A stretch of 64,000 bases of DNA from Hysterium pulicare CBS 123377 (lineage: Eukaryota; Ascomycota; Dothideomycetes; Hysteriales; Hysteriaceae), in contig AJFK01000165.1 of assembly GCA_000467715.1 (NCBI GenBank), positions 124,001 to 188,000 of the forward strand. Reading direction: 5' to 3'. This document shows positions 2,588 through 51,805 of the stretch, piece by piece; position 1 is the stretch's first letter, and each line of letters begins with the position of its first letter. The translations under genes and the position numbers were made by a program. The notes beneath the pieces are model-generated. The model was not told where the DNA came from and did no database searches. It saw only the letters and a program-made list of their open reading frames with translations.

Positions 2588-2844
2588 GTTCGGTCCAGGG
2601 ATCCCACAAATCTACCCATCACGATTGACGTGCATCTTTACTCCAACTGGCTCCCACACGACCAGCTCCACAGATGGCCGTTTTCGCTTCTCGCCGTAAC
2701 AGGGCTAGATTTTACTCGGCCTTTTTCTGTCGAGATTCACTTTTCATGCAGCCTAAGAGCTACGCCGTCATCTGTTCATCCTCCATTGCCTAACCTGTAC
2801 TGGTACTAGTTCGACGCATATCTTTGCGTCCGCCATCTTGCATA

Positions 2845-2853
2845 TTTATATAG
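2845..2853 (+). promoter_or_regulatory. TATA-like box of DUR3
   Basis: TTTATATAG lies about 85 bp before the chosen DUR3 start codon at 2936, a usual distance for a fungal TATA element plus a short leader. It supports this start. Confidence 0.4.
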
Positions 2854-2935
2854 AGAGTCTCCGCCCTGTGTCACTGAACATCAGCTGTGGGAGATCCCAT
2901 TTTGAAACCTTCAACCTTGACCAAGATCAGCAGCC

Positions 2936-6027: not shown

Positions 6028-8205
6028 CTATGTCGTCTTCGTCGTACTCGTAAACTGTTTCTGATCCGTAATAACCAACCCCGCAATACTCGCACTCGTC
6101 AACGTCGAAATCACCCCGGAAACAAGCGCACTAACCGCCAATCTCGACACATCACCACTACGGCCCGGACTGATTTGCGAGAGCACACCAATTTGAGTAC
6201 CAAGGGATCCGATGTTTCCGAAGCCGCAGACGGCGTAGGTGGCGATGAGGCGGGATCGAGGCGAGAGATCGGCATAGGTGGGGGATTGCAGGTTTGTGAA
6301 GGCGACGAATTCGTTGGCGATGACTTTTATGCCGATGAGGCGGCCGACGAGGAGGAGGTCTTTGCCTTGGCGGGAGACGCCGAGGAGGAAGGCGATTGGG
6401 TAGCAGACGTAGCCTTGGGATTGTGAGTTGGGATTCGTGAGGTGTGGGGGAAGAAGTAGGTAACTTACCGAGGATTAATTCTAGGGTGAGATCATATTCA
6501 CCGTCAAGATTGATGTAGCGACCCCACCATGTTAGCAGGCCGTCGACTAGGTTGAGGAGGGCAATGATGCAGAGGAGAGTCGTGACAATCATGCCGGCGA
6601 TCTTCAATCCTAGCCAAGCGCCATTAGCGAAGGCGTGGAGGGCGTTGGCAGCTCGGTGTTCATCGTCATCTGGGATCACAACTCTGCCTGCGGTGAGAGT
6701 TTCTTCCTCCTCTGGGTAGCGCAGTTTACTGATTGCCAGAGATGCGGGAATGCTCATTACACAAGAGGAGATCAGAGCTTGAGGATTAATACCCAGACCA
6801 CTGACAGATTCGTTAGCTAGGAAGTCTCCTAGTTGTCAAGAGATTCGAACTTACATATATGCCACAAGCACACTACCAGCAATGGTAGCAAAACCGGAGC
6901 ACATGACTTGATGCAATTCCGCCTGAGTAAGGTGGGCAACGAAGGGTTTGATCAACATAGCAGACTCGCCCTGTCCGATAAAAGGAGATGCAGAAGCTAC
7001 GACAGCCTCGGCACCAGATACACGCATACTCCAGAAGAAGAACACGGCGAATTTGCCGATGAACCATTGGAGCAAACCCCAGTAGTACAGTAGCTGCACG
7101 AAGGACACGAAGAAGATAATAGGTGGAACAACACCAGTGAAGAACCATGGGAGCTTAGGCACGGTTGCATCGGTCAAGAAGATCACACCGTCGTCGGCAA
7201 ACCCTAGGAGTTCACGAGCGAGGGTAGAAACGAAAGTGAAGATGTCGCTAATGTGCAGTTAGCATCGCCTCATCTATACCAATTTTATGGGGTTTTCAAC
7301 TTACTATCCGGCCTTTGTCCTCAAGACGAAGAGAGCGATAATGAATTGCATCAGCATTCCCATAATAACGGTGTGCCAGACAATCTTCTTCCTGTTCCTT
7401 GAAGTGGCCCAGAAAGCAGTGAGGAAGACAAGCAATCCAAAAAGCGAGACAGCGCGATTGGCGCGGGTATTGTCCTGGCTCTCAGGGCTTACGAAAGCCC
7501 CAATAAGAATCACACCGATGGTCAGGAGAGCTCCAGCTGGGACTCTCATCTGTTCGGGGATCAAGGAAGCAACTCTGACGCCAGTGTTATTCCATACGAA
7601 GTGCATTGGCTTGGTAACGATGGTGATGGGGACGTGGAAGAAGAGGAGGCGGAGCATGATGCATAACCAGAGGAGGAAAGGAATGATCCAATTCTTGTTG
7701 TGACGATGTAAGACCAAACTCGCTATCCACCATCTATGCGAAGAAAGGTCAGTCCCCGAATGTGTTTATGTGTCTGCTGCTGCTGGAGTTGCGCTTACCC
7801 AGTGAATAGCATGGCGATGAAAACGTGGACGAATATCCTAAACCTGCTATAGAAGCGTGCGAGGACATGGCGCTGAGGATCTTCCTCTTCAGCAGGATGT
7901 GAATGCGGGCTGTAGCTATCCTTCTCGTCGTATGCATCCAACCCACCATTCTTCTCTAAATCCTTCTCCGCTGTCCGCCCAGCATGTCGCCGCCTGTGGA
8001 GATTGTCATCGTTTGGATCCGCGTCGGGAATCACATTCGGCTCAGCAGTGGTGCCTTTCGAGTAGGCAATCTCGTCGGTGCGACCCTCCTCGGCGAAGGC
8101 ATCGTGGTGGAGATGGGCATGGTGGTGTTCGTGAGCAGGCTCGAGGGCGGGGTCAGGATTGTGCTCTGGCAGCAGCCCACTATGATTGTGAGTATGGTCG
8201 GCCAT
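6028..8205 (-). CDS. concentrative nucleoside transporter (CNT family)
   Basis: Five exons on the minus strand: 7799-8205, 7305-7733, 6855-7247, 6469-6800 and 6028-6413, giving 648 aa. Every junction restores a conserved block, for example VAY-IGLGINPQALISSCVMS and LELILG-YVCYPIAFLLGV. CNT signatures are visible: GAEAVVASASPFIGQGESA, then MSIPASLAISKLRYPEE, then ATYAVCGFGNIGSLG. CNT proteins take up nucleosides with H+ or Na+ at the plasma membrane, so this is a purine/pyrimidine salvage gene. The start is the ATG at 8205; the frame runs further upstream only from a non-ATG codon. The first 45 residues are very His-rich (HTHNH, HEHHHAHLHH), unusual for the family and placed in the cytosolic N-tail. 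Two GATA motifs lie upstream. Confidence 0.92.
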
Positions 8206-9584
8206 GGCGTTGAACACAGCACGAGGGCAATTGCCAGAGAGGGCCAACCGATTAGCAGAGACGGAGAGGTGGAGGCTTCATGGCGAGTGCTGGACCGAGT
8301 TTATACGGAATTCTCGTGGGACCAAAACTGGTGAGCAAGTAGGGCAAGAAGATTGTGCGACTTGGCAACTGCCTGTCCGGGTTACATGCAGAGTTGCTGG
8401 GCTCAAGGATGATTGGTGAATCTCGGTCATCTCCGCTCCAGTTCTATGCACCCGTCGCACCGCTGGACCCGGCACGATGATCGGTGCTCTGGATGCTGTC
8501 CGTCTTGCGCATGTTTGGGCCAGCTCCCTTATCAGCAAGGTCAGCATCTTTAAACGCCCATCTCTGCCAGCCATCCAATCATCTTTCTTAGCCTGTTCTT
8601 GGCCTGATAAACGGCGGCGATATCTGTGCGGGGGCCGCGGTTGAGGCGCCTTCTTGGGAGACGTGTGGCGTTCGGGGTCTATTCTTCGCTCCTTCGTCCA
8701 CAGAATCCCCAACGCCGACCATCCTGATCAAGAGCCCATCCGTCGGCTATTAAATCATAAATAAATAAGTCAAATGGCCTGCCTTATATGCGCAGGCTCT
8801 CGTATCATCGAAATTTGCTCCAATTGGACCCTCTCCATATTCTGACTGTGGCATTTTCCTCTTCTTTCGCGACGGAGAACGCGCTCGTAGCAAACAACCG
8901 TGGCATTATGATCAAACGCATAGACACTGGAAGGGCTGTGAAGATAAGCGGAACCTTACTGCATCCTTCGCATGTTTGCCCAGACGTATGCAACAGAGGC
9001 CAGGAAGAATTTGGCCATCAGCCATGAACCGGGTCGCTGATGCTGATCGCGTGTCATGCACACCTGAATTTGTGCATATCTCTTCCCAATCACTGTTGCG
9101 ACTTCCTATCCACAACAGAAATGCGCCTCCAATCTTCCCTATTCGAGATGGACCTCCAAGCAGAAACCGCTATCGACATTTCCTTTCCCATGAACACCGT
9201 CTACTTCGTCATCTGCCTGTAAGTTTCAGGGTCTTCGCTTCTTATCTCATGCATCTGTCCTATCTATATATTCCAAGACCACACAGACCTGAATCTATTG
9301 ACAACCAAAGGTAATGCTATCGTGAGGAATAGAACACTACATCAATGCTGCTAGGTAGCACATCCAGGGACCTGTTGGCATGTGGTCTCCGCTTGGGAGG
9401 AGGATGGGGAAACACAGCGCACTAACTTTCCCCTCGGAGCGAACCGATGGGGTGGTCTTGGGACTACTATGGAAACTACACCAATCACCGAACATCACTC
9501 TACGAGCCACGCACGTGCTACGTCACAGTGTTGTGAGCTACCCAATATGCGCTACCTACACAGTAAGGTCGGGAAGTCATCCAA
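8206..9584. other. spacer between the transporter promoter and the P450 3' end
   Basis: Besides the GATA motifs near 8.5-8.6 kb I see no supported feature. Minus frame 8278-8712 and plus frame 8976-9314 are Arg- or His-biased, lack motifs and overlap other open frames, so they are taken as chance. Confidence 0.45.
8528..8610. promoter_or_regulatory. GATA-factor sites upstream of the nucleoside transporter
   Basis: TGATAAG reads on the minus strand at 8528-8534, about 325 bp before the transporter start. TGATAA reads on the plus strand at 8605-8610. Two HGATAR matches within 85 bp fit the paired arrangement preferred by AreA/NIT2-type activators. The role is inferred from motif and gene function only. 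Confidence 0.4.
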
Positions 9585-11220
9585 CTATTCAAATCTGCTC
9601 AAGTATTCATCGGCTTTCTTCCATTCCTCCTCGATGACCTCCCGTTTCTTCTCCCCTCTCACTCGAAACTCCACTGGAAACTCTTTCGGTCCCGTCAGAA
9701 TGGCATCTTTGAACGCCGTCTTGACGTCTGTATCCGGCTTCCCTTTAGGAACAATATCAAACCCCCAAATCAACTTCGATATTGCCACCATCGTGCTATT
9801 TTCTGCCATCTGCTGGCCTGGACAAACTCGTCGTCCAGCACCGAAAGCGTAGATCTCCTTCCGCGATGAGTCGGATTCCTGAACGTCCGAATTCTTCGAG
9901 CCGTACTTATTAGACAGAAACCGTGAAGGATTGAAGGTATCCGGATCGTCAAACTCGTCCGGATCATGCTGGATACTCCAGGTGTTCATGATAATAGTAG
10001 TTCCAGCCGGGATGAAATAGCCCTCATAAGTATCATCTTGACTCGTGGCATGGGGAATGCTCACGGGCAGCGCCGGCCGCCATCTGAGCGTCTGGGCAAT
10101 CGTAAGTTTTTTACATGTGTATGGCAAACGTCGAATCGATCCAACTTACCTCCAAGAAGCACGCTCTAATATAGGGAAGTTCCTCATCTCCACCAATCCC
10201 TGGCATATCCTGCTCTCTAAACACCCTATCAACTTCACTTTGCGCCTGTTTCTGCACCTCCGGATACGCCGCCATAGCCAAAACAAACGTCAAAGTAGTC
10301 ATAGCCGTAGTATCCGCCCCTCCTTCCAACAAAAGCCCCGCAATGTACTGAAGCTCCAAATCACTAAACCCATCCTTCTCTTGCTCTCTCAACAACCCTG
10401 CCAGAAAACAATCCTTCCCCTTCCCCTTCCCCGACCTTTCCTTCGTCTCCTCAAAAAGCTCATGATACAACCCCTGCTGCCTCCTCTTCAACTCATCCGC
10501 TCTCTTCTTCCACCCTTTCCAAGGCGTCACCTGATCCGGCACCCACCTTAAAAAGGGGAAAATATCATAAGGCGGCATAGCCCCCTGATCCAACAAACCT
10601 GCCCACTCCTCCTGCACCTCAAAAAACTCCTTCGCGCGTCCATGCTCATACTTCTTACTCCGCTGCCCATACACCGAATTCAACACTACCCCCGCAAACA
10701 CTCTCATAATATGATCATGATACCTCCCGGGCGTCCTTAAAATCTCCCACATCATCTGGTTCGTCTCAGCATTCTGAACCGGCACCAACTTCTCCAACAC
10801 ACTCTCCTTCAAAAACTCCCTCGTCGTCTTCCGATTCTTTCGCCACACGCTCCCGTATTTCAGGAATACGATTGATAAGTCGCCTGGCACGACGTACTGC
10901 ACTATTGGAAAGTCGGGACGCGAGGAGTAGATAGAGCCGCGGTGATCGAGGAGATCGCGGACAACGCGCCAACTGTTTAGGATTATGGCGTTTGTGCTGC
11001 CGATTTTTAGGCCGGTGATGGGACCGTAGGTGCGGGACCAGGTGGTGAATTGGAGGAAGGACTTTTGGAGGGGGATTTGGTGGATGTTGCCTAGGAAGGG
11101 GAGGGCTGGAGGACCGGGGGGGAAGTTGGCTGGTCGGTGAGGTTGCGAGGCTTTGTGACGGATGATAAGAGTTAGGAAGATGAGGACTGCGATGACTGGG
11201 TAAAGGTATTGGTATGCCAT
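9585..11220 (-). CDS. cytochrome P450 monooxygenase
   Basis: Two exons (10150-11220 and 9585-10091) give 525 aa. The intron falls inside the ExxR motif (CFLE-TLRWRP), a common place in fungal P450s. In order: an N-terminal membrane anchor (about residues 4-20), a proline hinge (PPGPPALPFLGNI), the I-helix oxygen-binding motif GGADTTA (about 298-304), ExxR (357-360), the meander (NPSRFL) and the haem loop FGAGRRVCPG with the axial Cys near residue 445. All catalytic signatures are intact. It resembles microsomal P450s of fungal secondary or xenobiotic metabolism such as O-methylsterigmatocystin oxidoreductase-like enzymes. The substrate cannot be inferred. The ATG at 11220 starts the anchor directly; an in-frame ATG-like extension upstream would add 25 polar residues and is unlikely. 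Confidence 0.92.
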
Positions 11221-12175
11221 TTTTGGAGGTTCAGATGCGATGGCTTCTGGCCCTCGAAGCTGCTTTTTGAGGTATATAGGAGAGGAAGTAGACAAGGCTG
11301 ATTCATATCGCTGAACCCCTCTCTCTATTTAAACCTAGCTATTACTTGTCACGACTGCGGGACCTTCCCGGAATCAACCTCACACACATACATATCATGC
11401 ACGCCAAGCCCTGTCACTCACCTGTCAACTCCAAGGCGTTGATGCAAGAAACCCCATCTATCCTACTTTCTACCCTTATCACGCAGGCATCCGTGATTAT
11501 TCAGCTGTAGAGTTCCCCGCGCCCGGTGCCCCGTTTCCATCTACATTAACAAGGGAGTTGAAAATGCTCCAATTACCCCCCCTGCTGACCGGAGTGCTGG
11601 GGCGTGGATGTTGGGATTATTGAGCGCATTACAGAGCTGTTGTGTAACATTGGTGGGACGGATCCGGCGAATACATGTGCGGAGATGAATATTGTCAGGG
11701 TCGTGATGGGGTATTCATAGTGAGAACATGTGGGTTCTTTGATGGACTTGCAATGTTGGTGGTGGCTACGGTTGACTGAGACGTGAATCGGTGGGGTTGT
11801 ATAAGCTGTGGTTAGTCAGGGAGGTGTATTTCTGCTGTGAACGTTTGGGAGTTGAACTTCTGGGAAACTTTCACTAACACGATGTTTCTAGTTTATTGGT
11901 CGATAGGTGGCTGATCAAGTCAGGATTGGTGTGAAGAGAAATAATGACATGAAAATACGGCTAAAATTTACAGATAGAATTAGGATTCTGCCATGGCTGC
12001 TGAAACGAGGCTTTTCATTTTCCTGCGTCGCAGAAGAGAGTTTCGAAATCCATGAGGATTCGGCCCCAAATCCTTGATGGGTATAAATTCGCTATTCCCT
12101 TTGTCAAAGATCGTGGAGTTAGATTGCATCACAATTCTCTTATTCTTGCATCCGTATCATAGTTTACTTCGGAAT
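11221..12175. other. divergent promoter region between P450 and the membrane-protein gene
   Basis: No gene is supported. It carries a TATA-like box for each flanking gene: TATTTAAA at 11326-11333 for the P450 and TATAAAT at 12082-12088, 94 bp before the ATG at 12176. No other repeat or motif stands out. Confidence 0.5.
11326..11333 (-). promoter_or_regulatory. TATA-like box of the P450 gene
   Basis: TATTTAAA (minus-strand TTTAAATA) is 106 bp before the ATG at 11220 and supports that start rather than a longer reading. Confidence 0.35.
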
Positions 12176-38656: not shown

Positions 38657-39746
38657 GATTGGCAATTGAAGTCACAAGAAGTTAAGATAAAAAGAGTGTT
38701 GCGCGTAAACCAGACACGCGAAGCTGTATTGATGTCTAAGGAACGACTGGGAGTGAGTTTTAAAAGAGTGGACTGTCAAGGAGAGCAGAGGGAGCACGAA
38801 ACGAGGAGCAAGGCATGGCGGTGTTTTACGGCACGAGCGTTGGAGAGGATTGTCGCGACCCTGAAATTAAGGAGTTGCATCATACCAAAACGGGATTGGC
38901 TTGGAATCGGGAAAACGAATCATAAACGGACCAAGGACCCTCATCCGCTCTGCTAACGACGAGGTCCAGGCATTCACGCTATTTTTGATCACGCTGGATA
39001 GAATAGACAACCCACATTCTCTGATTCTACTCATCACTGTTCTCAAGGCATACTGAACAATGTGTCGTCCAGCAGAGGCGCCGCCACGACGCCTTAACCG
39101 CCTGCGCGTCTTCGGAGAATCAAAGCAACGCAGCGAGGCGCCTCCACACCAGGCGAAGTACCCAACTTGAAACACCTTCTGCGCTCCTGGCCGCAGCGTC
39201 GCCCAGGCTCCTCGACTTCAAGTCAGGTTGAGCATTTTCTTCTTCTCAACCCTCTTTTGGAGATTCTAAGTCAGAAACGCTCTTTAGCCACGCGTAATTG
39301 TTCACGATGCTCGTTCTGCTTCAACCTCGTGCCTCTAGAAGGGTTTGTTCACAACGCAATTCAATCTCTATACGATAATTTGCATCTCGCGTTCGTATTA
39401 TATGCGTATCCGTGTTTTATTGCCTATGCGTAGAGTCGAAGGTTATCAATCATTTAGTCAATTTTCATTTCATCAATAGTCAACGATCGTTCTATCACGC
39501 AAGTGTTCTTCGACTTCACAAGTTCTCGTGCAAAAGTTTAGGTTAATGACTTCTATTCGCGCTACTTTCAATACAAAAGGTAACGTAGGGATAAATTTCG
39601 TCAACCGGAAATCCGCTAGAACGACCCGGCGCGTGCTACTGTTTTCAGACGCAAGTCTACACATGTTGCTGCCTCCTCGGCACATGCAAGTCCACAAGTC
39701 CAGCCTTCACAGACTATCCCTAGGAACTGCTACTACTTCCTGACGT
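38657..39746. other. 1.09 kb spacer before the tandem array
   Basis: It contains the CRH promoter. The minus frame at 38867-39175 has no motif. No repeat of the three-unit array was recognised here by eye. Confidence 0.4.
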
Positions 39747-40360
39747 TCATCTCACCCAGCAACTATCCATGTTCTCACTACCGCATCTACTCCGCCCCGT
39801 GCCGCCATCACCGTCTACAACATCAGAACGATTCTTACCCTTACACGTTATGAGGTCTCTGGAACTCAGGCCCTTACCATACACCTTTCTACCTTGGTTT
39901 TTCTTTTTGGTTTTAGGCTTTGGAGGTCCATGCTCCCGATTCTCTTTATGCCAATCAGTGTCAAACGGCAACTGAGCTGCTCGGCCGGAGCTGGCTCAGG
40001 CCCTGGTATTGGAGGTACTGGTGGAGTGTCAGGTTCAAAACTTGTCTCTCTACCCCCTTCTGGTGTTTCCTCCGCTCTGCTCTAATGTCCAGATTGATGC
40101 CCTGACCATAGGTATGCTTCGCGCAGCCACCAGGAGACAATGACATGAAACTTTTCGCCGCAGATACGTCCGGTTTTTGGGTCCTTGTAAGTACAGTATG
40201 CAATACGCATTCTCTTCAAACATCTCTGCTCATTCGTCCCACCACATTCAGAACTATCAACGAATTAGTGTTTGTTCTTATAAGATCGGAGAAGGGTAGC
40301 TTACCAATGATGTGGTCGAGATACTGCGCCTGTCTGGTCGTTCCGCACTTTCTTCGCCAT
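39747..40360 (-). pseudogene. unit A small Cys/His-rich partner, apparently broken
   Basis: Exon 1 (40305-40360) encodes MAKKVRNDQTGAVSRPHH plus the first two bases of a Cys codon, and the intron (40254-40304) ends in TAG. Exon 2 continues CSECGGTNEQRC, then AYCTYKDPKTGRICGEKF. The matching downstream parts, SPGGCAKHTYGQG and then TKKKNQGRKVYGKGLSSRD, lie in two other frames, so at least two frame changes separate them. Start, intron site and motif order match copies B and C. It is either a decayed copy, a gene with an extra unseen intron, or affected by assembly errors. It is a host gene with no known function. Confidence 0.6.
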
Positions 40361-41036
40361 GATCTACCTCTGTCGATCACTGATTACTAAGTTCCAGTGG
40401 GCGGATGGTGGGACGAGGACGGAAGAACTGCTCAGGAGCATTTATCATAAGGCATATGAGGTGATTTTAAGCCTCTAGTTCGTGATTTCATCCTCAGTGA
40501 ATTAGATACATCGTGATGATAATGCTGCAATCCCTGAGGTATGTCTCCACACAATGTATACTTTCTCTCCTGTATGATTCCCAAACACAGTAGCAGCAAT
40601 ATGCATACACGTTGACTCCTAATCTACGGTCAATGGTTAGCAGCATTATCTTGGCAAATGGTACATGCAAGAGGGTCTATGCCACACAATTTGCGTATAA
40701 TCAAGTGAGTAGCCCATTATACCATCACTATACATCATTCACGACCTAACCATATCAAAATCGCCAAATTCGGATACCTTGACATTGTGTAACCATAAGA
40801 CACCTTTTTGATGAACCCACTCATTATTGTCTTTCATGAGCCGAATTGTTACATAGTTTGTTGACGTGTGTGTGCATTCACCAGTTTTCTTTTCGCAACA
40901 AGCACATAAAACTTCCTATCTCTTCTTCTCCATCTACACCCAGTCTCTTCCGATCAAACTTTCCATCCAACAACCCTGTACCACCCTCTCTCAAATCCTA
41001 CTACTTACTCAGGCAGGGCAGTCTATTACGGTAATA
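40361..41036. promoter_or_regulatory. shared divergent spacer of unit A
   Basis: The 676 bp lies between the start codons of partner A (-) and kinase A (+). The last 130 bp are C/T-rich, as in leaders of well-expressed fungal genes. No TATA box is convincing. No motif shared with the spacers of units B and C was recognised by eye. Confidence 0.45.
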
Positions 41037-42596
41037 ATGCGTCTTCCCGGCATACTTGCCGCGATCTGTAATAAATTCAAGAACCTACACCCGTGCAATA
41101 GTGGTACCAAAGCATGCCAACCCTCACCCAAGACGACGGGCCTTCTCCGTGGCGTTATACCCTCACGACCTAAAAATGAGGTGGCCGTAACCGAGCAAAT
41201 CGTCGACGAGAATAAAGTAGACACAGAGTGCACCACAACTACTCCTAACGACTTGGACGGTACTACCGTCAAGACAACGGACGAGCTGGATGATGACTCC
41301 GACTCCGACTCCGACTCTGACTCTGATTCAGATTCAGATAGCAATGACGAAGAAGAATGGGGCCCGATTAAGTCGATACCTGACCGAGATTTTGTCAAGC
41401 TAATTCTCTGCCACTTCGACCCCGACGGAGTTCTGGGTGGCGTAGGCGTCTACGTGAGCGGACGATGTGAAGGCTCATATCATCAGGTGGTCTTTCTAAC
41501 ATTTCTTGGTGGTGGTAAGTTTATTGTGAAGGTGCCAGCCAACGGTTGGGGCGACCGTTGGACCCAAGGTGATGCCCGCAACTTACGATCCGAGGCCTGT
41601 ACAATGGAGTATATTCGCCGCAAGACGACTGCAAATCTTCCAGTGCCAATGGTTATGGCATATGACGATACTTTGGACAATGAAATCCATGCACCATATA
41701 TCATCATGGAATGTATGGAAGGCAAAACAGCGCAGCACATTTGGTATGATGTAGACAAGAAAGGCGACTTCATCTATAGTATCCCTGGGCCTGAACGTCT
41801 CCAAAAACGGATAACATTTCTGAAATCGTTAGCGCGGGCCGTGTCCGAGCTTCGAGTGTTTGAGTTCGACAAAATCGGGATGCTAGGCTTTGAAAGCGAC
41901 CCTCACAATCCTTCCATAGTCCAACCCTGGAACAAGGATATCCGTGAGGAACGACCTGTCTACACAAGCACCAATGCTTTCTACTCCGCGAAGTTGAAGG
42001 AAGACTGGCCTGTAGGGACCGACGATAGGCTTAACGGCATTACAAAGATAACTGAGCGGGTACTCGATACATTTCCTTTCGACGCTGCTTTTGGGGAAAC
42101 ATTCGTGCTGACCCACAGCGATCTCAACCTCCAGAACATTCTCACAGACCCAGAAGGCAACGTCACTGGAATCATTGACTGGGACGGAGCATGCACGGTT
42201 CCACGCTGTGTCGGCTACGCTGCGGTTCCCATATTCTTACGCGCTAACTGGGAAGAACAGTACATGTATCCAGTACGACTACCTTCTCCGACCGAACTCG
42301 CCTCCTACCGTAAGATCTACGCTAAGGCGATGCGTGAGGCTATGGATGGGGAAGGCGATTGTAAGTATACTGAGAAGAGCGACATCTACACGGCTATCCA
42401 TGATGCTTTTTATTCTTATGGCTGCCTTCCTGTGGTCATCGATAGGATAATTAGCGACATACTAGGCCCTCGAATGATCTATCACCACCATTTTGAAGAA
42501 CTGATGGGTACGGGATTATTTCCAGACGGAGAGGAGGCTTTACGGCGGCATTTGCCGGAGTATTTGGCTCCTGATCTTTCCATTGTTGGGGGTTGA
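41037..42596 (+). CDS. unit A phosphotransferase (APH-fold) kinase-like protein
   Basis: A single exon of 519 aa from the ATG at 41037 (the frame opens earlier only at a GTG). Residues 83-105 form an acidic Ser-Asp repeat run ending EEEWGPIK. The kinase fold follows: the ATP-site Lys in KFIVKVPANG (K163), the helix-C Glu in NLRSEACTMEY (E184), the catalytic loop HSDLNLQN (H360, D362, N367) and the metal-binding Asp of GIIDWDGA (D381). A long family block PRCVGYAAVPIFLR follows. These are the signatures of the aminoglycoside/choline phosphotransferase (APH) superfamily, and all catalytic residues are present. The substrate is unknown and antibiotic resistance is not implied. It is divergent from partner A and intact although that partner is not. 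Confidence 0.85.
   Translation: MRLPGILAAICNKFKNLHPCNSGTKACQPSPKTTGLLRGVIPSRPKNEVAVTEQIVDENKVDTECTTTTPNDLDGTTVKTTDELDDDSDSDSDSDSDSDSDSNDEEEWGPIKSIPDRDFVKLILCHFDPDGVLGGVGVYVSGRCEGSYHQVVFLTFLGGGKFIVKVPANGWGDRWTQGDARNLRSEACTMEYIRRKTTANLPVPMVMAYDDTLDNEIHAPYIIMECMEGKTAQHIWYDVDKKGDFIYSIPGPERLQKRITFLKSLARAVSELRVFEFDKIGMLGFESDPHNPSIVQPWNKDIREERPVYTSTNAFYSAKLKEDWPVGTDDRLNGITKITERVLDTFPFDAAFGETFVLTHSDLNLQNILTDPEGNVTGIIDWDGACTVPRCVGYAAVPIFLRANWEEQYMYPVRLPSPTELASYRKIYAKAMREAMDGEGDCKYTEKSDIYTAIHDAFYSYGCLPVVIDRIISDILGPRMIYHHHFEELMGTGLFPDGEEALRRHLPEYLAPDLSIVGG
41290..41345 (+). repeat. Ser-Asp microsatellite in kinase A
   Basis: Imperfect hexanucleotide repeats GACTCC/GACTCT/GATTCA encode about eight Asp-Ser pairs just before the conserved WGPIK start of the kinase domain. 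Such a tract can change length in frame and offers many casein-kinase-2 type sites. Confidence 0.75.
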
Positions 42597-43611
42597 GTTT
42601 AGATTGATAGATAGACTAAAGCATAAAATGAGTCGGATTCTGCTTCCACAATACCTTGCTAACAATTAGGGAATACGTAGATGTATGGGAAGTGTGACGT
42701 AATAAATATCGCTAACTGGTTCGGCTTGGCGAAGTCGACTTCTTCTGAGACGCTCGCTCTTGAAATCCTTTCCTTCACACTCCATCTCCCGGGCTTTCTC
42801 ATAGGACCTATCGATCGTGAAACAAAATACGACATGCTATCGAAATGCTTACATATTTCATCGTCCATGCATGAACTACAGTTATTCTTTGATGATCTAA
42901 ACCTCCACTTCTAACAAGCTTCTAGCCTTCATTAAATGTCAGGTAAAACGGGTTTGAGCATGTGTCTACCTGTCCATCTCCCATTTATGCAACCATTTGC
43001 TCAAGCGTTGGTAAGCGTGTGAGGTTCCTTTCTTTCTTACAAGCATTTGCCTCTGACCGTCCTGGCAACTCATCAGCAGCTACTCAGTCATTTGCGATAT
43101 CTCTCCTTCCTATTAATCGTTGATTTTATAATTATTTGATTACATTCACAAGTTCACTATTTCAACATTTGACCACGTGCCTCTTCTACATTGTATCACA
43201 CTCGAAAGAATTTCTGAATGGGGTTTTAAATTTCATTGCAACTACATCAATGGAGCAGATGGTGGTTTGAAGTTCGTACAAAGGTAGTACGGTTGAGCAC
43301 AGTTTCCCTTCTACCCTCGCGCAGAGTATGTCGAATAGTGTATGCTGAGCACACACTTCTACTCTGCATGATATAGTGTTTGAGTTGGAACATAACGAAA
43401 AACATCGGGTACAAGACAAAGATGAGTCAGGGGAAAGAGGTTTGTTGACAAACGAAGCCAGTGGTGAAGAAGGAGAGTCGCCATAACTACTTCCAGATCA
43501 GCTCGAGGTACAGACATGGTCGAAAATGACGATTCCACAAAGAGAGGGAGGTGACTTACCGAAGGAGACTTTCCGGTATCAATCTCCGTGCGAGATACTG
43601 CGAAATCAAGA
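42597..43611. other. spacer between units A and B
   Basis: The 1.0 kb between the kinase A stop and the partner B stop contains only short chance frames (42681-42914 +, 43186-43419 -). It is the convergent 3' region of two array units. Confidence 0.45.
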
Positions 43612-44143
43612 TCAGGTACCTTTGCCTTGTTTGGACTTATGTTTCTGCTGTTTCATGAGGTCCCTGAAAGAAAAGCCATTGCCACCTTTCTTCACCCCCT
43701 GGGTGATGCGGGTCTTGGCTTTCTGCTTCCCCTTAACTCGGAACTGGGGCTTGTCGTCCTGCTCTTCGTCCGCAGCCACTTCGGGCTCTGCTTCCTCCTC
43801 CATTTCATCAGCTTGCTCATCGTTGTCCTTGAGAGGGAGCCGGTATCCCTTATTAACTGCTTTGACCTCCTTGTTGAAGTCCAGACGGTAAGGATGCTTA
43901 ATGCACCCGCCCCCAGATTGCACGGTATATCGCTCTCCACAAACAGAGCCGTCTGGCATCAACGATTCGCACATGGCGACATGACCTTTCTTCAGGCAAC
44001 GTGCCGTCATTGCTTTTTTGCAATAAGAACTATGGAAAGTTAGCTGCTTCTTATTTCAGGATAGGAATAGGGATTACTCACCAGTGATGGATTTTGCCTG
44101 ATAAAGCTCCAGTTTTAGCATTGCGTACGAAGAAGCCGCCCAT
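43612..44143 (-). CDS. unit B small Cys/His-rich (probable zinc-binding) partner protein
   Basis: Two exons (44082-44143 and 43612-44029) give 159 aa. The first encodes MGGFFVRNAKTGALSGKIHH, and the intron splits the next Cys codon. The second gives CSYCKKAMTARCLKKGHVAM, then CESLMPDGSVCGERY, then QSGGGCIKHPYR. The pattern CxxC, C, C, VCGER, GGC, H is shared with copies A and C and suggests two zinc sites. An acidic stretch (about residues 90-115) is followed by a strongly basic end: KAKTRITQGVKKGGNGFSFR, then DLMKQQKHKSKQGKG. The TQG-K and F/L-S-x-D motifs near the end are also shared. No known family is recognised. Its position beside a kinase gene in every unit points to a joint role. Confidence 0.75.
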
Positions 44144-44711
44144 GGTTATGAAGTTAGTGTTCGAGTTTTTCTTCGAGTGTCTTCGAGTTTGTATTCGAAT
44201 GGCTTCGAGTTGGTTTTGCAAGTTGGATTTCTAGTTGATTTTCGGCACTGCCGTTGGTACGTTTTGTTGACGAAGAAGCAAGAGAAGAGCTCGAAGCAGG
44301 CTCTTATGGTAGTGGATTCTGGTGACTCGTCCCATGCTGCTAATTCACGGTGATCGACTCCTTTCCGTGATCTGTATACGAACATTTCGATAGAGTGACC
44401 AACTTATATGACAGGAAACTGTGATGGTAAGTATATATCATAACAATGTGCATGTACTAAGTGCACGGTCAACCCCAGATTCACCTCGGTTGGGTGGACT
44501 CTGGTCGTGGTCGAGAGAATATCTTCAATTCACTCCCATTGTTTGCGCACATTCTTCGGGATCACATTCGCATACAGTGTGACCTTGTGGACAAGTACTT
44601 TTACGACAAACTCTCTTCCCACTTCATTTAATTATATCAAACCACAACTTCCTCTCCACTTCTTTCCATTTCGAGCAACTTCTTTCCACTTACAAACGAG
44701 ACTACGCCACT
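44144..44711. promoter_or_regulatory. shared divergent spacer of unit B
   Basis: The 568 bp separates the start codons of partner B and kinase B. Its left end carries a phased TTCGAGT repeat listed separately. The part before the kinase is T/C-rich. A bidirectional promoter is inferred from layout. Confidence 0.5.
44160..44210. repeat. five phased TTCGAGT/TTCGAAT elements before partner B
   Basis: The seven-base word starts at 44160, 44172, 44182, 44194 (as TTCGAAT) and 44204, so spacing is 12, 10, 12 and 10 bp, close to one DNA turn. It lies 17-67 bp upstream of the partner B ATG. All copies would face the same side of the helix. It may be a protein-binding array or a leader repeat; the sequence alone does not decide. 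Confidence 0.6.
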
Positions 44712-46322
44712 ATGGGTTTCTGTGCGTCCATGAAACGTGCAGTCAATCGCTTGTGTGGCGTGCCAGCGAAAGTGTCGAATAAAAACTTACGCAAGCCTCA
44801 CATCCAAAAAGCCAACTGTATAGATTATCTTCTCCGTCGCCAAGACCGAAATGACCAACGTTTCACAACGGGAATGGTTTCAACTCCACTTAATTCATCG
44901 TTTTCGAGCAAAGGCACCACACAAATCGAGGAAGAGGAATACATTCAGAAGATAGTCGAGGATGAGGATGAGGATGAAGATGAGAACGAGAATGACGACG
45001 TGGCGATAGATGAGCTTTTGTGGGGTCCTATCAAGTCCATCGAGAGCAAGGCCTTCGTCCGACTAGTCATGCGCCATCTCGACCCTGATGGTGAGCTTGG
45101 CGGTGTCGGCGCCTTTGTGAGCGCGCGCACGGAAGGTTCTTTTCACCATGTTGTCATGGTTACCTTGCTTGGAGGAGGAACCTGGGTGGTGAAAGTTCCA
45201 GCGTGTGGCTGGGGCAAGCGTTGGACAGCCGCTGACGCTTATATGTTGCGCTCCGAAGCACTATCCATGACATATATCCGTCGACATACGAACATACCAA
45301 TTCCCTGCGTTATGGGATTCGATGAGACAATGGATAATGAGATCCAAGCGCCTTATATCATCATGGAGTACCTCGAAGGTAAGCCAGCACTCGAGATCTG
45401 GTACGATCATGACAAGGATGGCGAACCCGTAATTGAACGATCCACTTCACCAGAGCTCCTGAAGAAACGCCGAACCTTTCTAAAGTCACTTGCTCATACC
45501 ATGGCCGAACTCCGACATCTTGAATTCGACAAAATCGGTGTCCTCAACTTCGAACATGGTCACGATAGCCCTGCGATTGGAACATATCAGTGGACAGAGG
45601 AGCCCGGAGACAAATTACCAGGATTTAAAGGATACGAGCGAAAGATTTTTACGGTGCCCACATACACCTCGTCCAAAGATTATTACTCCAAGAAAATCCA
45701 AGAGAATTTTCCCAAGGGTGTTATCCCGCAATGCACCGGGATCTCCAAACTTCTAGATATGGTTGTGGAATCGTCACCATTCTCCGAGTCTAAGGAAGAC
45801 GACTACGACGAAAAGGAGACATTCGTCTTAGCACATGCAGATTTTGATCTCCAAAACATTTTAACTGATTCAGAGGGAAACATCACAGGAATCATTGATT
45901 GGGATAACGTAAAAACTGTACCACGATGCGTGGGCTATGCCGCTGTTCCTATGTTCCTGCGAGAGGACTGGACTGAGGATTACTTCTGGCCAGCAAAACC
46001 GGACACACAATGGATGATGCCCGTCAAGGAGTTGGAGTATTACCGAACGCTTTACGCGGTCGAAATGTCCATTGCTATGGGCGGCAAAGGCGATTGCAAG
46101 TACACGCAAAAGAGCCACATTTATAACGCTTTTCATACATGCTTTTACCCTTACGCCGGTGAGACTGGCAATGCTATCGACTTTTGCTCTAAACTTCTTT
46201 ACCATCTCATGCCTTATGCTTGGGCAAAGGATGTCGAAGAGATGCTGGGTGAGGATGGTTGGGAATGGGGCGCAGAGGAGTTGCGTAAACTCATTCCGGA
46301 ATTCATGGCGCCTGCGGCGTGA
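44712..46322 (+). CDS. unit B phosphotransferase (APH-fold) kinase-like protein
   Basis: A single exon of 536 aa. The N-terminus MGFCASMKR has Gly2, Cys4 and Ser6, which resembles an N-myristoylation plus palmitoylation signal. Residues 77-95 form an acidic run (EDEDEDEDENENDD) before LLWGPIKSI. Kinase signatures: WVVKVPACGWG (Lys near 161), MLRSEALSMTYIRR (Glu of helix C), HADFDLQN (H375, D377, N382) and GIIDWDNV (D396), then PRCVGYAAVPMFLR. All catalytic positions match the APH superfamily. The order acidic tract, WGPI, GSFHHV, LGGG, then kinase core is the same as in kinases A and C. The substrate is unknown. Confidence 0.85.
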   Translation: MGFCASMKRAVNRLCGVPAKVSNKNLRKPHIQKANCIDYLLRRQDRNDQRFTTGMVSTPLNSSFSSKGTTQIEEEEYIQKIVEDEDEDEDENENDDVAIDELLWGPIKSIESKAFVRLVMRHLDPDGELGGVGAFVSARTEGSFHHVVMVTLLGGGTWVVKVPACGWGKRWTAADAYMLRSEALSMTYIRRHTNIPIPCVMGFDETMDNEIQAPYIIMEYLEGKPALEIWYDHDKDGEPVIERSTSPELLKKRRTFLKSLAHTMAELRHLEFDKIGVLNFEHGHDSPAIGTYQWTEEPGDKLPGFKGYERKIFTVPTYTSSKDYYSKKIQENFPKGVIPQCTGISKLLDMVVESSPFSESKEDDYDEKETFVLAHADFDLQNILTDSEGNITGIIDWDNVKTVPRCVGYAAVPMFLREDWTEDYFWPAKPDTQWMMPVKELEYYRTLYAVEMSIAMGGKGDCKYTQKSHIYNAFHTCFYPYAGETGNAIDFCSKLLYHLMPYAWAKDVEEMLGEDGWEWGAEELRKLIPEFMAPAA

Positions 46323-47287
46323 GAAACGCGTCGCATCGTTTTAAGATTCTTTTACCGGAACCTGTTGGTTCTGAACGTCTTTTTCATTTTGATCTACTGC
46401 TATTTATGCAGATTTAGAGTCTGATTTTAGACATTTTACTTTATAGATGACGAGAAGATGATACTACAAATTACGATTGATGATATATTGGGCTGGTTAT
46501 CTTCTATGTTGCTCTTACCCGTGATTTGTATTAATGCAAACTAACATCCCTAAATCTGTCCTTCAAGTAATAAATTCTTAGCAGTGTTAGCACCATCTAA
46601 TGGACAAAGTCCAGGAGATATTTGACCAGCACGTGACCGTATGATGAGGTAATAAGTTGTTACTAAGCCCGGTCCCCATACTAACAAAAGACGACAAACG
46701 ACCAACACTCTCCTTTTCTTCCACTCTTTTATACCAGAACATATCTCACATTCACTACAGACACATGCATTCAATCCTCTGAATCGTTCAATTATATCTC
46801 CGTCTAAGTATCTGAAGCACTCGTTTGAAGCACTCACTTATCACCTCCATTGTTCGAAGCTTCACAACAGTGTACAAAATCTCACTGGGAGTTTCAAGAT
46901 TAGGGTAAAATATGGAGTGTGCTACCTAGATCAATGGGTGCATAGGATATAACCGAAGTCTATATTGTTGAAGATAGACTTCGACCTTGCGCAGGATATT
47001 ACCGAAGTTTGTATGGTTGAACATACCCTTCTATCCATGATCAAAAAGCAAGGGGTAAGGACAAGATACTAAGTGAAGGGAGAGATGGGCAGGGAAAGGA
47101 GAAAATCGCTGTTTGAAAAGCCAAAAATCGGAGTATAACCGATGACAAGCGGTCAACGATGCGTATCGACCAATCTAACAGAATGATTGACGTCAATAGT
47201 CCACCCTAACCATTCTAACTTTATCAACAGCAGGACTTCGAGCTCTGAGACTATCTAGTCTCTTGTCTTAGTGATTTGGCCCTCGAT
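46323..47287. other. spacer between units B and C
   Basis: The 965 bp holds the converging 3' ends of kinase B and partner C. The only clear structure is the repeat and hairpin at 46944-47030, listed separately. No gene is supported. Confidence 0.45.
46944..47030. repeat. imperfect direct repeat with hairpins in the B-C spacer
   Basis: Two related stretches of about 38 bp start at 46944 and 46993 (GGATATAACCGAAGTC and GGATATTACCGAAGTT), 49 bp apart. The first contains a perfect inverted repeat GAAGTCTAT (46955-46963) and ATAGACTTC (46974-46982). The second keeps a shorter one (GTATG/CATAC). It lies between two converging array genes. Confidence 0.55.
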
Positions 47288-47845
47288 TTAAGGCTTGCCA
47301 CCGTTATTCTTACGCATTTTCTTGATGTCGCTTGCAGTGAGCCTATTCGAGGTTTGCTTCCTACCTTGAGTTACCTTGGTCTTAGCTCGGGGAGGGGCCT
47401 TCTCCCGGTATTTAGTCTCTGGTTGTGCATTTTCTTCAACAGCCTCAACTTCGTTTTCGGGCTGTTCATGTTCCTCTTCTTCAAGAATGGTGTCTAGAGG
47501 CTCACCACGGTCCATTTTCCTACGACGCTCTAAGATGCGAGCATTATATCCCAAGACCTTTGGGTGGCTTCCGCAGCCTCCTGAGTGCACGCCGAACCGC
47601 TCGCCACAGACCCGGCCTTGGTCTGTGAGCTCCTCACAGTAAGCCTGATGGAGGTTGTCAAAGCATGACTTACTTAATGGTTTCTTGCATTCGTTACTAA
47701 AAAACTCGTTAGCATGCACTGATTTTTGTAGGGGGAGAGGAGTTTCTTACCAATGATGAGGCTTCTGGCTTACAGCCCCAGTGGTCTTGTTACGGAGTCT
47801 AGCATAATTGAGTACCTTATGCTGGGGTTGGTCTTTTGGATTCAT
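47288..47845 (-). CDS. unit C small Cys/His-rich (probable zinc-binding) partner protein
   Basis: Two exons (47751-47845 and 47288-47696) give 167 aa. Exon 1 ends RNKTTGAVSQKPHH, and the intron splits the next Cys codon exactly as in copies A and B. Exon 2 gives CNECKKPLSKSC, then AYCEELTDQGRVCGERF, then VHSGGCGSHP, the same CxxC, C, C, VCGER, GGC, H order. A Glu-rich middle (about residues 110-135) is followed by a basic tail, RAKTKVTQGRKQTSNRLTAS, then DIKKMRKNN. A TATA-like run (47926-47935) lies about 85 bp before the ATG. The family is unrecognised; a metal-binding fold is inferred from the Cys/His spacing. Confidence 0.75.
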
Positions 47846-48377
47846 TTTGTAAGTGAAAGTTGTTCTGATCTTTGCTTTAAAGTCAACTTAGTGATGATAG
47901 AAAGGAAGAAAGTTAGAGTAGATTCTTATATTATAGGCAGCCGGTGATTCAGTCAAAGGAGTTCCACACTAGTATTTGTGAATACAGAATACAACAACGA
48001 GGTATAGACCGTCATTGTTCGTTTTCAGATCATTTATATAGGCGCCTGAAGAGCTTTGGTGAGCTTTTATCATCGGTGATATGAAATGGCTGTTCTCGTG
48101 CTCTGTGAATGTATAATTAACGTGAGTACAATCACATTCCAACATTGTGAAGATAGTGAGCACTACTTCCGGATTGTCCTCCTACAAAGTACTGTGAGTG
48201 TATTTTACATTGTTTTCCTACAACTACTAACTCACGATTTCTAAAGTAACTCAAACAATATAAAATCCACATTCTCCCCACGATATATTATTTAATCCAC
48301 CCAAATCCGCAATCGTCTATCAACACAACCAATACATCGACTCTCATTAATTTCATCTCGGAACTAAACGTTCCAAT
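47846..48377. promoter_or_regulatory. shared divergent spacer of unit C
   Basis: The 532 bp carries TATAATATAA on the minus strand at 47926-47935 for partner C and TATAAAA at 48259-48265, 119 bp before the kinase C ATG. Two outward-facing TATA-like boxes support one bidirectional promoter region. Confidence 0.5.
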
Positions 48378-50051
48378 ATGGGTATTGGAAACCTCCTCGG
48401 ATCGGCTTATGCTGGAATTGTCAAACATTTACAGACGGCCGTGCGTTCGAATGATCGCAATTCCTCACAGCGCTTCCAAATTCGAATGAAGCCTCGTAAG
48501 ATCAACAGCAACAAATCCCAAATCCCTAAGAAACACCGGAATATCTTAGATCGAATCTTTCATCGAAAGCCCAAGCCCGATGACCAGGTGGTCACTGATA
48601 CAACTGGTTTTGTTTCAACTACCGGTCTACTTGTAGACGAGTCTACAACCCCTGATGATGTAGCCATTGACGTGGTAATGGATGATGGTTCATCGACTAC
48701 TACCCGCTCACCATCTTTGGCTGAGTCAACCCACACTACCACGTTCTCGGTCACAGAAGAGGACGATGAGCAATACTGGGGTCCAATTCGGAATATTACC
48801 GATAATGCATACCAGCAGCTCCTTCTACACCATCTTGATCAAGATGGTCAATTAGATGAACCAGGTGTTGAAATTATCTCACACCACGAGGGTGCATTTC
48901 ATCATGTTACAATCCTCGAGTCTATTGATGGTAGCAAATGGGCCATCAAAGTCCCCGCAGAAGGATGTGAAGACCGATGGACTCCTGGAGACGCCTACAA
49001 TCTTCGCTCTGAAGCGCAAACAATGAACTACATCCGCCGTCACACAAAGGTGCCCGTGCCATTTGTCGCAGCCTTCGATGACACGATGGACAATGAAATC
49101 GGGGCACCCTACATTATCATGGAGTGTGTGGAAGGTAGGCCCGCTACAGATCTTTGGTTCGGCAATGAGGAAGAGTATCTTAATGATGCTCCACCAGAAC
49201 GCATTCAACTGCGCATCAACTTCTTAAAGTCGCTAGCGAAAGCGATGGCTGAGTTGGGCCGTCTAGACTTCGACAAGATTGGCATGCTCACTTTCCCTTC
49301 GGGTCCTGATGCGCCTATCGTTGGTCCGTACTGGGACTGCAAGAAAGCCTCGAATCGTGATCGTCTTATGGCTGGTGTCGCACGGAAGATGGTTGAACGA
49401 CCAGTCTACGACTCTTCGAAACAGTTTTACACGGCAATGTTGGAACAGGAGTGGCAAAAGGACGACGATGATCAGATTGATGGAATCATCAAAATTTTGG
49501 AGTGCATCCTCGACTCTCAGCCTTTCTCTTCTTCCAAGAAGTCTTTTGATGATGCGCATAGCCCTGAAACCTTTGTCCTCGCGCACGCCGATTTTAACTT
49601 TCAGAATATCTTCACAGACCCTGAAGGGAACGTCACCGCCATTATTGATTGGGATGGCGTTTCAACCCTGCCACGTTGCGTAGGCTATGCCGCGGTTCCT
49701 GAATTCCTCCGATGCGACTGGCAGCGAGACTACATTCATCCAGGCACAGCGGCTCATTCGCCGACGGAGTTAGATTTCTACCGCAAGGTCTATGCTGAGG
49801 CCATGCTCGAAGCCCACGGCGCTGACGCCGGTGACGGCGAATACACCCTCAAGAGCGCTATCTACTGCGCCATCCATGAAGGTTTCTATGGGAACGGTGA
49901 CCTAGCGGGCTTCATCAAGAAGATGTTCATAGGCATTCCTGATCTCCGTTTTACTGATGTTGATACTTTTGAAGAAGAGCTAGGTAAAGGAAGCTGGGAC
50001 CGGGCGGAAGCGATTGTCCAAGAGTTCGTCCCGAAATTCCTGGCGCCCTGA
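48378..50051 (+). CDS. unit C phosphotransferase (APH-fold) kinase-like protein
   Basis: A single exon of 557 aa starting MGIGNLLGSAYAG. The basic N-terminal 65 residues (RMKPRKINSNKSQIPKKHRN) differ from copies A and B. A Thr/Ser-rich and then acidic stretch ends EEDDEQYWGPIRNI. Core motifs: KWAIKVPAEG (ATP Lys), NLRSEAQTMNYIRR (Glu), HADFNFQN (H403, D405) and AIIDWDGV (D424), then PRCVGYAAVPEFLR. It is intact, and the APH superfamily assignment is firm. The target is unknown. It ends the array; beyond it lies a MITE-like element and no fourth unit. Confidence 0.85.
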   Translation: MGIGNLLGSAYAGIVKHLQTAVRSNDRNSSQRFQIRMKPRKINSNKSQIPKKHRNILDRIFHRKPKPDDQVVTDTTGFVSTTGLLVDESTTPDDVAIDVVMDDGSSTTTRSPSLAESTHTTTFSVTEEDDEQYWGPIRNITDNAYQQLLLHHLDQDGQLDEPGVEIISHHEGAFHHVTILESIDGSKWAIKVPAEGCEDRWTPGDAYNLRSEAQTMNYIRRHTKVPVPFVAAFDDTMDNEIGAPYIIMECVEGRPATDLWFGNEEEYLNDAPPERIQLRINFLKSLAKAMAELGRLDFDKIGMLTFPSGPDAPIVGPYWDCKKASNRDRLMAGVARKMVERPVYDSSKQFYTAMLEQEWQKDDDDQIDGIIKILECILDSQPFSSSKKSFDDAHSPETFVLAHADFNFQNIFTDPEGNVTAIIDWDGVSTLPRCVGYAAVPEFLRCDWQRDYIHPGTAAHSPTELDFYRKVYAEAMLEAHGADAGDGEYTLKSAIYCAIHEGFYGNGDLAGFIKKMFIGIPDLRFTDVDTFEEELGKGSWDRAEAIVQEFVPKFLAP

Positions 50052-51805
50052 ATCTTTCTGATCTCTGTCTCCCTCTTACGCATTTTTTTCTACTGCTATT
50101 TGGTTGCACTTAGCGTTATCTGGATAACGTATACTTTCTACAATAAATGAGAAATGATCTTATATTGATTTACCGACTTTCTTTGTCGCTCTTTGATCAT
50201 TATGTGACACACCATGCTTTGCCAGTTATCTCTATGCCTCAAATTTATGTGTCTTATTACCCGAGAAGAATCGAATGTCTTTGTCCTTTCGCACAACATA
50301 AATGAGAGCTTTAAATATAATCACCGCTTACGCGTGGTTGAGCTTAACCAAACTCTTTTTCCTTTCGCACAATGTAGGAATGTCCGAAACGGGAAGGGAT
50401 GCTTGGCATCCTCGGCAAAGGCCAACTTCACTTCACTGCATTCCTCTGCTTTTGCTCTACCACTTCCGACCTCGAATAACCCTGTCCGCATGTCGCTACT
50501 TAATCTCCACGGTGAAAACACGAGAAGATGTATCTGATATATCTCATTCAGTCTCATCGATCGTAACATGCGCAACGGTCTTCATTCATAATGAACTCAC
50601 ACCGTCAACGTAGGTGTGCATTTTCGACAGAACCCGAGCTCAAGATTGCCTTGTTCTCATAAGAGGGACTTCGAGACTTGACTGTCAAAGATTTGGCGCT
50701 CAGGCCCACGGTTTAATTCCCTCGGCCCAGAACAGCACTTTGCAAGTGATCATGTGAAGCATTCGCAATTCCTAGCACGCCCTTTCCCTGGAAGAAGATT
50801 TGGTAAAGTTCAACCACGCGTAAGCAGTGATTATATTCAGAGCTCTCATTTACGGTGACCTCTCCCTTGATTCAGTACACTTGACGGCTAAGTCAAGCCC
50901 ATTTCGGTTATTTGACGCGCTCGATCCATTAAAATCGTGCCTTTCCTTTCACCGTATATTTCATAAAGTCAAGCCAGTGAACCATGACAGGCACCACTTC
51001 GTTCCTATATACTAACTTTCAGTCACTTTCGACTCCTCAACTTCATGCGCCCATTAGTTCTCGCACGCGGCCGATTGCGGCCGGTGTCATTAGGGCACAT
51101 TCACCATAGTGCCAGGGCTCGCAAGCCATTGGCGCATCTCATCCGTTCGATGAGTGAAGGGACATCCTAAGAATACAATTTCCTATGGTGGTGTGATCCA
51201 GTTTGCAAAAGGTAGGTCTTCCCTTAACTTTCTTGTCACCTGCGTCCTTGCAAACCTCCTTCACTCGCATCATATCTACTTTCGTGGCTTGGCTGCATCA
51301 TCTGATCCAAACTCTATTTGAACTACATTTTGACCTGAATTTCTTCAGGCTGCCATCAACTTCTTCTTTATCTTCACACTCTCCCACTTACTTCTATCTC
51401 GACCATCACGAACCAATCGTGAATTCATACTTTGACCCACTGAAAATTCACATCTCATCGCTATCGGCACTGGACTGCACGTTCCTTGTCACAGAAAGCT
51501 CATTCAATCTCGAAGCTCAATTCACCTTCTCTCTCAACTGGACTCTCCAGCCCTTCACAATCGAGACTACGTCGCAGACCTTCTCAGACGCATACACACC
51601 TTCACAAAGCCGCTACATTAGCTCTACTTGTCTACAGCTTTGTCACTCCCCAAGCTTTCTTGGTGCATTCAGCAAGTGAAGCCTTTTCCGGAGATCGACC
51701 TCACAGCGCTTCGGACCACAAGGACTCAAACATCAAATCCTACTTTCACACTTCCAATTTAACTTAGCTGCCACAAGGCTTTCAATTCCTCTACCTCACA
51801 GCAAA
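50052..51805. other. 1.75 kb spacer holding a MITE-like element
   Basis: A MITE-like element occupies 50299-50852. From about 51.2 to 51.8 kb the plus strand is T/C-rich, probably the leader of the gene at 51806; the 158-codon frame there (51203-51679) is a product of that bias. No gene is supported. Confidence 0.5.
50299..50852. mobile_element. MITE-like non-autonomous DNA transposon remnant
   Basis: About 60 bp at the left (50301-50362) recurs as its reverse complement at the right (about 50789-50850): AATGAGAGCT...TATAATCAC, then GCTTACGCGTGGTTGA. There are roughly six to eight mismatches, several of them C/T or G/A. Both ends are flanked by TA (50299-50300 and 50851-50852), as for Tc1/mariner-type insertions. 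The 550-bp length, long inverted ends and lack of coding fit a MITE. CCTTTCGCACAA also occurs on both sides of the left end (50285 and 50361). Confidence 0.6.

What the first reader, a model, noticed from the sequence alone, without database searches (positions are those of the whole stretch)
39747..50051. A divergent two-gene unit (small Cys/His protein plus APH-fold kinase) amplified three times in tandem
Seen: three copies of the same pair in the same orientation, kinase starts 3675 and 3666 bp apart, each pair opening outwards from a 0.5-0.7 kb spacer, with kinase catalytic residues intact in all three. Known: APH-fold genes are common in filamentous fungi but usually lie singly. Inference: the pair is a functional unit, for example a kinase and its substrate, regulator or adaptor, because copying and divergence kept both genes together. 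I know of no described fungal system with this layout.
Basis: partly seen in the sequence, partly recalled or inferred. Interest (0 to 1): 0.82.

Follow-up and report, generated by a model that had tools for sequence, protein, structure and literature searches.

The report
Triplicated divergent kinase–zinc-protein gene pair
A fungal genome carries three old, side-by-side copies of a two-gene pair (an antibiotic-kinase-like enzyme and a small, probably zinc-binding protein), one copy having a broken small gene, and the long survival of both genes hints that they work together but does not prove it.

Summary
The layout is real. Three single-exon APH-fold kinases (41037-42596, 44712-46322, 48378-50051, +) each have a small Cys/His gene on the opposite strand, 676, 568 and 532 bp upstream (ATG to ATG). 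The three small genes share a phase-2 intron of 51-54 nt inside the same Cys codon, which settles their homology. One correction: the first small gene is not intact. Its family matches lie in three successive frames, and the first frame change leaves no room for an intron. It is a recent pseudogene, or broken in this assembly. Synonymous sites are saturated, the divergent spacers show no detectable similarity, and proteins are 37-49% identical, so the duplications are old and both families were long constrained. In this genome I found the kinase subfamily and the partner family only here; no partner was detected at 25 other APH-like places (22 with at least 1 kb upstream). Pfam, NCBIfam and PDB sequence searches gave no relative of the partner. 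Still, tandem duplication of one ancestral neighbour pair gives this layout without functional coupling, and no other fungal genome could be searched. Best reading: a co-retained kinase/zinc-protein pair, about as likely as not to work together. Interesting, not extraordinary.

The parts
39831..40360 (-). P1, small Cys/His gene of copy 1, broken: exon 1 40305-40360, intron 40254-40304, exon 2 from 40253; family matches continue in three successive frames (to 40142; 40131-40054; 39938-39831 by the P3 query)
   Evidence: tblastn with P2/P3; profile hits 21.2, 15.6, 16.0 bits, shuffle control
40361..41036 (.). 676-bp divergent spacer of pair 1
   Evidence: no match to the other two spacers at blastn E<=0.1
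41037..42596 (+). K1, APH-fold kinase, single exon, 519 aa
   Evidence: PF01636 43.5 bits; motifs intact
43612..44143 (-). P2, small Cys/His gene, intact: exon 1 44082-44143, 52-nt intron 44030-44081, exon 2 43612-44029; 159 aa
44144..44711 (.). 568-bp divergent spacer of pair 2
44712..46322 (+). K2, APH-fold kinase, single exon, 536 aa
   Evidence: PF01636 36.0 bits; motifs intact
47288..47845 (-). P3, small Cys/His gene, intact: exon 1 47751-47845, 54-nt intron 47697-47750, exon 2 47288-47696; 167 aa
47846..48377 (.). 532-bp divergent spacer of pair 3
48378..50051 (+). K3, APH-fold kinase, single exon, 557 aa
   Evidence: PF01636 42.2 bits; motifs intact

Best explanation
A divergently transcribed two-gene unit was duplicated twice in tandem long ago and both genes were kept by selection. 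Shown: APH-family kinases with intact catalytic motifs, and a small protein made of a Cys/His block (C-x2-C-x7-C-x8-C-x9-C-x10/11-C-x2-H in P2 and P3), an acidic linker and a basic tail. Inferred: the Cys/His block binds zinc, and the small protein works with the neighbouring kinase as adaptor, regulator or phosphorylation substrate, the two being expressed from a shared intergenic promoter. Unit 1 is decaying or shares a partner: its small gene is broken while its kinase is intact. The kinase substrate (small molecule or protein) is open.
For: Tandem layout and the same intron position in all three small genes. Saturated synonymous sites with constrained protein sequence in both families: pS 0.76-0.81, pN 0.34-0.46 over the three K pairs and P2-P3, while the divergent spacers show no similarity (best cross match E 0.11). 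Both families are nearly equidistant among copies: K 48.8, 47.8, 44.5%; P 24/51, 24/51, 26/52 residues in the shared block, as expected if the genes duplicated together. In this genome partner queries hit only the array, apart from one 16.6-bit match at E 0.15; the profile finds no partner at 25 other APH-like places (best 7.2 bits, E 1.5); the K2 query finds three close members, all here. Two neighbours both surviving as duplicates is more likely if they are needed together (inference).
Against: P1 is broken while K1 is intact, so K1 does not need its own partner. All pairs descend from one adjacency, so co-occurrence counts once. No expression, interaction or other-genome data. No shared promoter element found between spacers. 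The own-genome partner searches missed the broken P1 itself, so diverged copies elsewhere could be missed too. The partner is known from three sequences of one genome; zinc binding is read from Cys/His spacing alone and the structure model was unusable (mean pLDDT 48.1).
Confidence: 0.5

Rival explanations
1. Passenger model. Two functionally unrelated genes happened to be neighbours when a segment of about 3.7 kb was duplicated twice by unequal crossing-over; each family was then kept (or, in P1, lost) for its own reasons.
For: One ancestral adjacency explains all three pairs. A tandem APH pair without a detected partner occurs elsewhere in the genome (C184, 36% identical). Fungal APH families are reported to expand (F. 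zanthoxyli, PMC11110190, passages seen, one from the abstract). P1 is broken independently of K1.
Against: Both families show old, constrained duplicates; a passenger would be expected to be lost more often (inference). The partner is not found elsewhere in the genome at the reach.
Confidence: 0.4
2. Conflict module. The pair acts like a poison and a protector (or a self-recognition system): the small protein is harmful unless the kinase acts, and the array diversifies under conflict. Copy 1 has lost the poison and kept the protector.
For: P1 broken with K1 intact is the loss order expected of a poison/protector pair. In SPOK spore killers a Cys/His cluster and a predicted kinase domain are both needed for resistance, and a Spok2 allele lost killing but kept resistance (PMC6660238, passages seen).
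Against: The small protein has no recognised toxic domain by Pfam or NCBIfam. SPOK is one polypeptide; the passages relate its kinase to eukaryotic-like kinases such as Kdo kinase and do not call it APH. Nothing tested shows toxicity, drive or polymorphism.
Confidence: 0.06
3. Annotation artefact: the small 'genes' are not real, or the P1 break is an assembly error.
For: No transcript data were available; no Pfam or NCBIfam model recognises the small protein.
Against: Same phase-2 intron, homologous protein at 37% identity with saturated silent sites in P2/P3. The three kinase frames (519-557 codons) and flanking frames of 891-1298 aa are open, which speaks against a high indel rate; a local error in P1 cannot be excluded.
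Confidence: 0.04

Closest known systems
APH phosphotransferase family (PF01636), fungal expansions
   Same: Family membership by profile and catalytic motifs; passes the Pfam cut-off in all three. Family expansions are reported in fungi (PMC11110190, passages).
   Different: Three tandem, highly diverged copies with an acidic or Ser/Thr-rich N-terminal extension and a divergent Cys/His neighbour. No match to any curated resistance-enzyme model at its cut-off (best 29.4 bits against 205 for APH(3')).
SPOK spore-killer proteins (Podospora; PMC6660238, passages seen)
   Same: A Cys/His cluster and a predicted kinase acting together in a filamentous ascomycete; multi-copy family.
   Different: SPOK is one protein with coiled coil, nuclease and kinase; its cluster is C-x3-C-x13-C-x5-H-x7-H; here two genes and another spacing.
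PsiK and other small-molecule kinases of fungal metabolite clusters (fold recalled; PsiK seen only in a search listing)
   Same: Fungal small-molecule kinase of this general fold (recalled, not tested here).
   Different: Of six flanking stretches scanned with Pfam (32-62 kb) none matched a biosynthetic family: four matched GH16, TFB6, SNF2/RING and a HAMP histidine kinase, two had no match. A P450-like frame by eye at 10111-11328 was not scanned.

Membership tests
APH / PF01636 (K1-K3) | Score over the curated family cut-off | tested here: met
   43.5, 36.0, 42.2 bits against 23.2
APH / PF01636 (K1-K3) | Catalytic HxD...N loop and metal-binding Asp (IDW[DE]) (motifs recalled) | tested here: met
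   H360, D362, N367, D381 invariant (K1 numbering)
APH / PF01636 (K1-K3) | Kinase activity and substrate | not testable with these tools
   No assay; AlphaFold model unusable (mean pLDDT 31.5)
Aminoglycoside resistance kinases APH(3')/APH(4) | Score over the NCBIfam cut-off | tested here: not met
   Best 29.4 bits against 205
SPOK spore killers | Cysteine cluster and kinase in one chain | tested here: not met
   Two separate genes on opposite strands
SPOK spore killers | Cysteine cluster C-x3-C-x13-C-x5-H-x7-H | tested here: not met
   P2/P3 spacing is C-x2-C-x7-C-x8-C-x9-C-x10/11-C-x2-H
SPOK spore killers | PD-(D/E)XK nuclease domain | tested here: inconclusive
   None recognised by Pfam in K1-K3 or in exon 2 of P2/P3, but whether Pfam would recognise the SPOK nuclease was not checked
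Known zinc-finger families (small protein) | Match to a curated profile | tested here: not met
   No Pfam or NCBIfam match up to E 1 for exon 2 of P2 and P3; PDB profile search with the whole proteins best E 0.35, chance level, though all five listed are zinc-finger or LIM chains
Toxin-antidote / meiotic driver | Killing and protection | not testable with these tools
   Experiment needed

The most novel reading that the evidence does not exclude
A two-protein fungal conflict system not described before: a small zinc protein acts as poison (or recognition signal) and an APH-fold kinase as its protector, amplified and diversified in tandem, with one copy that has already lost the poison and kept the protector.
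Probability: 0.05. Interest if true: 0.85.

Novelty: new variant of a known kind. Interest (0 to 1): 0.4.

Why it matters
APH-type kinases are reported as an expanded family in some filamentous fungi (PMC11110190), and to my knowledge most have no known substrate. A constant neighbour that is itself conserved gives a concrete candidate substrate or adaptor to test. The small Cys/His family matches no Pfam or NCBIfam model. The array also offers a natural comparison: two intact pairs and one kinase whose partner is broken.

Tried and rejected
AlphaFold for K1 (three-row alignment, mean pLDDT 31.5) and for the small protein's exon 2 (two rows, mean pLDDT 48.1): too poor, so no fold search was run. 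A second intron to explain P1: one search listed 10 single-intron options (GTR/GCR donors, YAG acceptors, 30-300 nt) from the first frame to the last; none keeps the GGC-x2-H part in frame. Forms with two extra introns were not enumerated. Relatives outside: prokaryote genomes for the partner (586 pattern matches, none confirmed), virus contigs for partner and kinase (65 and 61 pattern matches, none confirmed), PHROGs (partner best E 0.094, K2 E 0.0087 to a family of unknown function). These collections hold no fungi by design, so this says little. Rfam in 38700-51700: no match at gathering score. Shared promoter motif between spacers: best cross-spacer blastn hit E 0.11. Loose motif search: one chance-like match of the full Cys/His pattern at L025:4429-4659 (-), without a profile score at E<=20, and a lone GGC-x2-H at L018:2365-2583 (+); both set aside. 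Literature: eight searches, several with capped lists, showed no paper whose title or abstract start describes this pairing; passages of six papers were seen, none whole. Tree comparison of the two families: three nearly equidistant tips and no outgroup for the partner, so not attempted.

Full report
Setting. The window is part (124001-188000) of contig C134 of a 37.2-Mb, 596-contig genome. Of six flanking stretches scanned, four match ordinary families: a GH16 enzyme and a TFB6 homologue on the left, a SNF2/RING helicase and a HAMP-repeat histidine kinase on the right. That this is a filamentous ascomycete is my inference from such genes and the compact layout.

Kinases. All pass the Pfam APH cut-off and keep Lys, Glu, HxD, QN and IDWD. 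Pairwise identity is 48.8, 47.8 and 44.5% over 488-499 codons. Searched with K2, the whole genome gives 13 matches: the three array members at 100, 53 and 47%, and ten fragments elsewhere at 27.7 bits or less, nine of them in places of the APH list and one (C491) not. The trio is thus a subfamily of its own here; the next best alignments of K1-K3 to other APH frames of this genome are 82 bits or less, against 360-401 bits among themselves.

Small genes. P2 and P3 encode 159 and 167 aa and are 37% identical. Their Cys/His block (HHC-x2-C...C...C...VCGE[RK][FY]...GGC-x2-H) is followed by an acidic stretch and a basic tail (net charge -11 and -10, then +8 and +7, in blocks of 30). A 51-54 nt intron with GT..AG ends splits the same Cys codon (phase 2) in all three copies. 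This settles homology of P1, P2 and P3 better than sequence identity alone.

P1 is broken. tblastn with P2 and P3 places their N-terminal, middle and C-terminal parts in frames -1, -2 and -3 of the P1 region, in collinear order. A P2/P3 profile finds the three pieces at 21.2, 15.6 and 16.0 bits; the best of 500 codon-block shuffles gives 10.9. Between the first two pieces there are about ten nucleotides by the P3 match (by P2 they overlap), too few for an intron; between the second and third an intron is possible. None of the ten single-intron forms listed from the first to the last frame keeps GGC-x2-H in frame. Since silent sites are saturated yet all three pieces are still recognisable, the break must be young compared with the duplication (inference), or an error of this assembly.

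Age and selection. For the three K pairs and P2-P3, pS is 0.76-0.81 and pN 0.34-0.46 (Nei-Gojobori counts, synonymous distance beyond correction). For the 55-codon P1 stretch, pS is 0.89 (P2) and 0.71 (P3), pN 0.43 and 0.44. Divergent spacers show no match between copies better than E 0.11; of the 3' regions, one 21-nt stretch shortly after the K2 and K3 stops matches at E 0.003. The duplications are therefore old, and both proteins were constrained, the small one less.

Is the pairing specific? Partner queries against the whole own genome return only P2 and P3 and one 16.6-bit match at E 0.15. These searches missed the broken P1, so their reach is limited. I therefore fetched 25 stretches covering 25 other APH-like places (27 matches outside the window, which I count as 24 genes, plus C491) and ran the profile on all six frames. 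At 8 of the 25 one flank is under 4 kb (7 by a contig end, C184 by my own cut), and at 3 (C73, C251, C491) less than 1 kb lies upstream of the match, so 22 can be judged upstream. Best outside the window: 7.2 bits, E 1.5, while the broken P1 pieces score 15.6-21.2. So no partner was detected at 25 other APH-like places, and 3 of 3 kinases of this subfamily have one (one broken). One of those places, C184, holds a second tandem APH pair (36% identical), without a detected partner.

What this means. Co-retention of both genes through old duplications favours a working pair, but the three pairs trace back to one adjacency, so the statistical weight is one event. The copies are nearly equidistant in both families (K 44.5-48.8%; P 24/51, 24/51, 26/52), which fits joint duplication and gives no further test. 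I put a functional pair at about one half and the passenger model at 0.4.

Function. No Pfam or NCBIfam model and no solved structure names the small protein. The kinases' best solved matches are weak, to hygromycin-B kinase around the catalytic loop (E 0.017); NCBIfam resistance models are far below cut-off. A role in aminoglycoside resistance is thus not supported. The most useful analogy is SPOK, where a Cys/His cluster and a predicted kinase domain are both needed for resistance to killing (PMC6660238, passages). It is an analogy only: single-chain architecture and cluster spacing differ, and the nuclease test is inconclusive.

Limits. No other fungal genome, no expression data and no usable structure. 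The literature statement rests on eight searches of one open-access library, several with capped lists.

Noticed in passing
window 50297-50361 (+) and about 50787-50856 (-), just downstream of K3: Two inverted copies of a dispersed repeat of about 65 bp; the first copy matches about 40 other places in the genome at 93-98% identity (lower bound, 40 of 274 candidates scored). In 8 of ten sampled stretches the likeness among copies runs about 40 bp further on the 5' side, and it ends at a T run; it looks like the end of a short mobile element.
   Followed up: partly
L007 (C184:13000-22900), 1493-3334 and 7398-9158, minus strand: A second tandem pair of APH genes (frames of 614 and 587 codons, 36% identical; matches start 5.65 kb apart), without a detected Cys/His partner.
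   Followed up: partly
window, about 46385 and 50081: A 21-nt stretch (90% identical, E 0.003) shortly after the stop codons of K2 and K3, the clearest non-coding likeness found between copies.
   Followed up: no
window 44712, 48378, 44143: K2, K3 and P2 begin with Met-Gly; K2 (MGFCAS) resembles an N-myristoylation signal (motif recalled). K1, P1 and P3 do not begin so.
   Followed up: no
window about 41280-41357 (K1) and the corresponding region of K2: Acidic low-complexity stretch (Ser-Asp repeats in K1, Glu-Asp in K2) just before the kinase domain; K3 has a Ser/Thr-rich stretch there.
   Followed up: no
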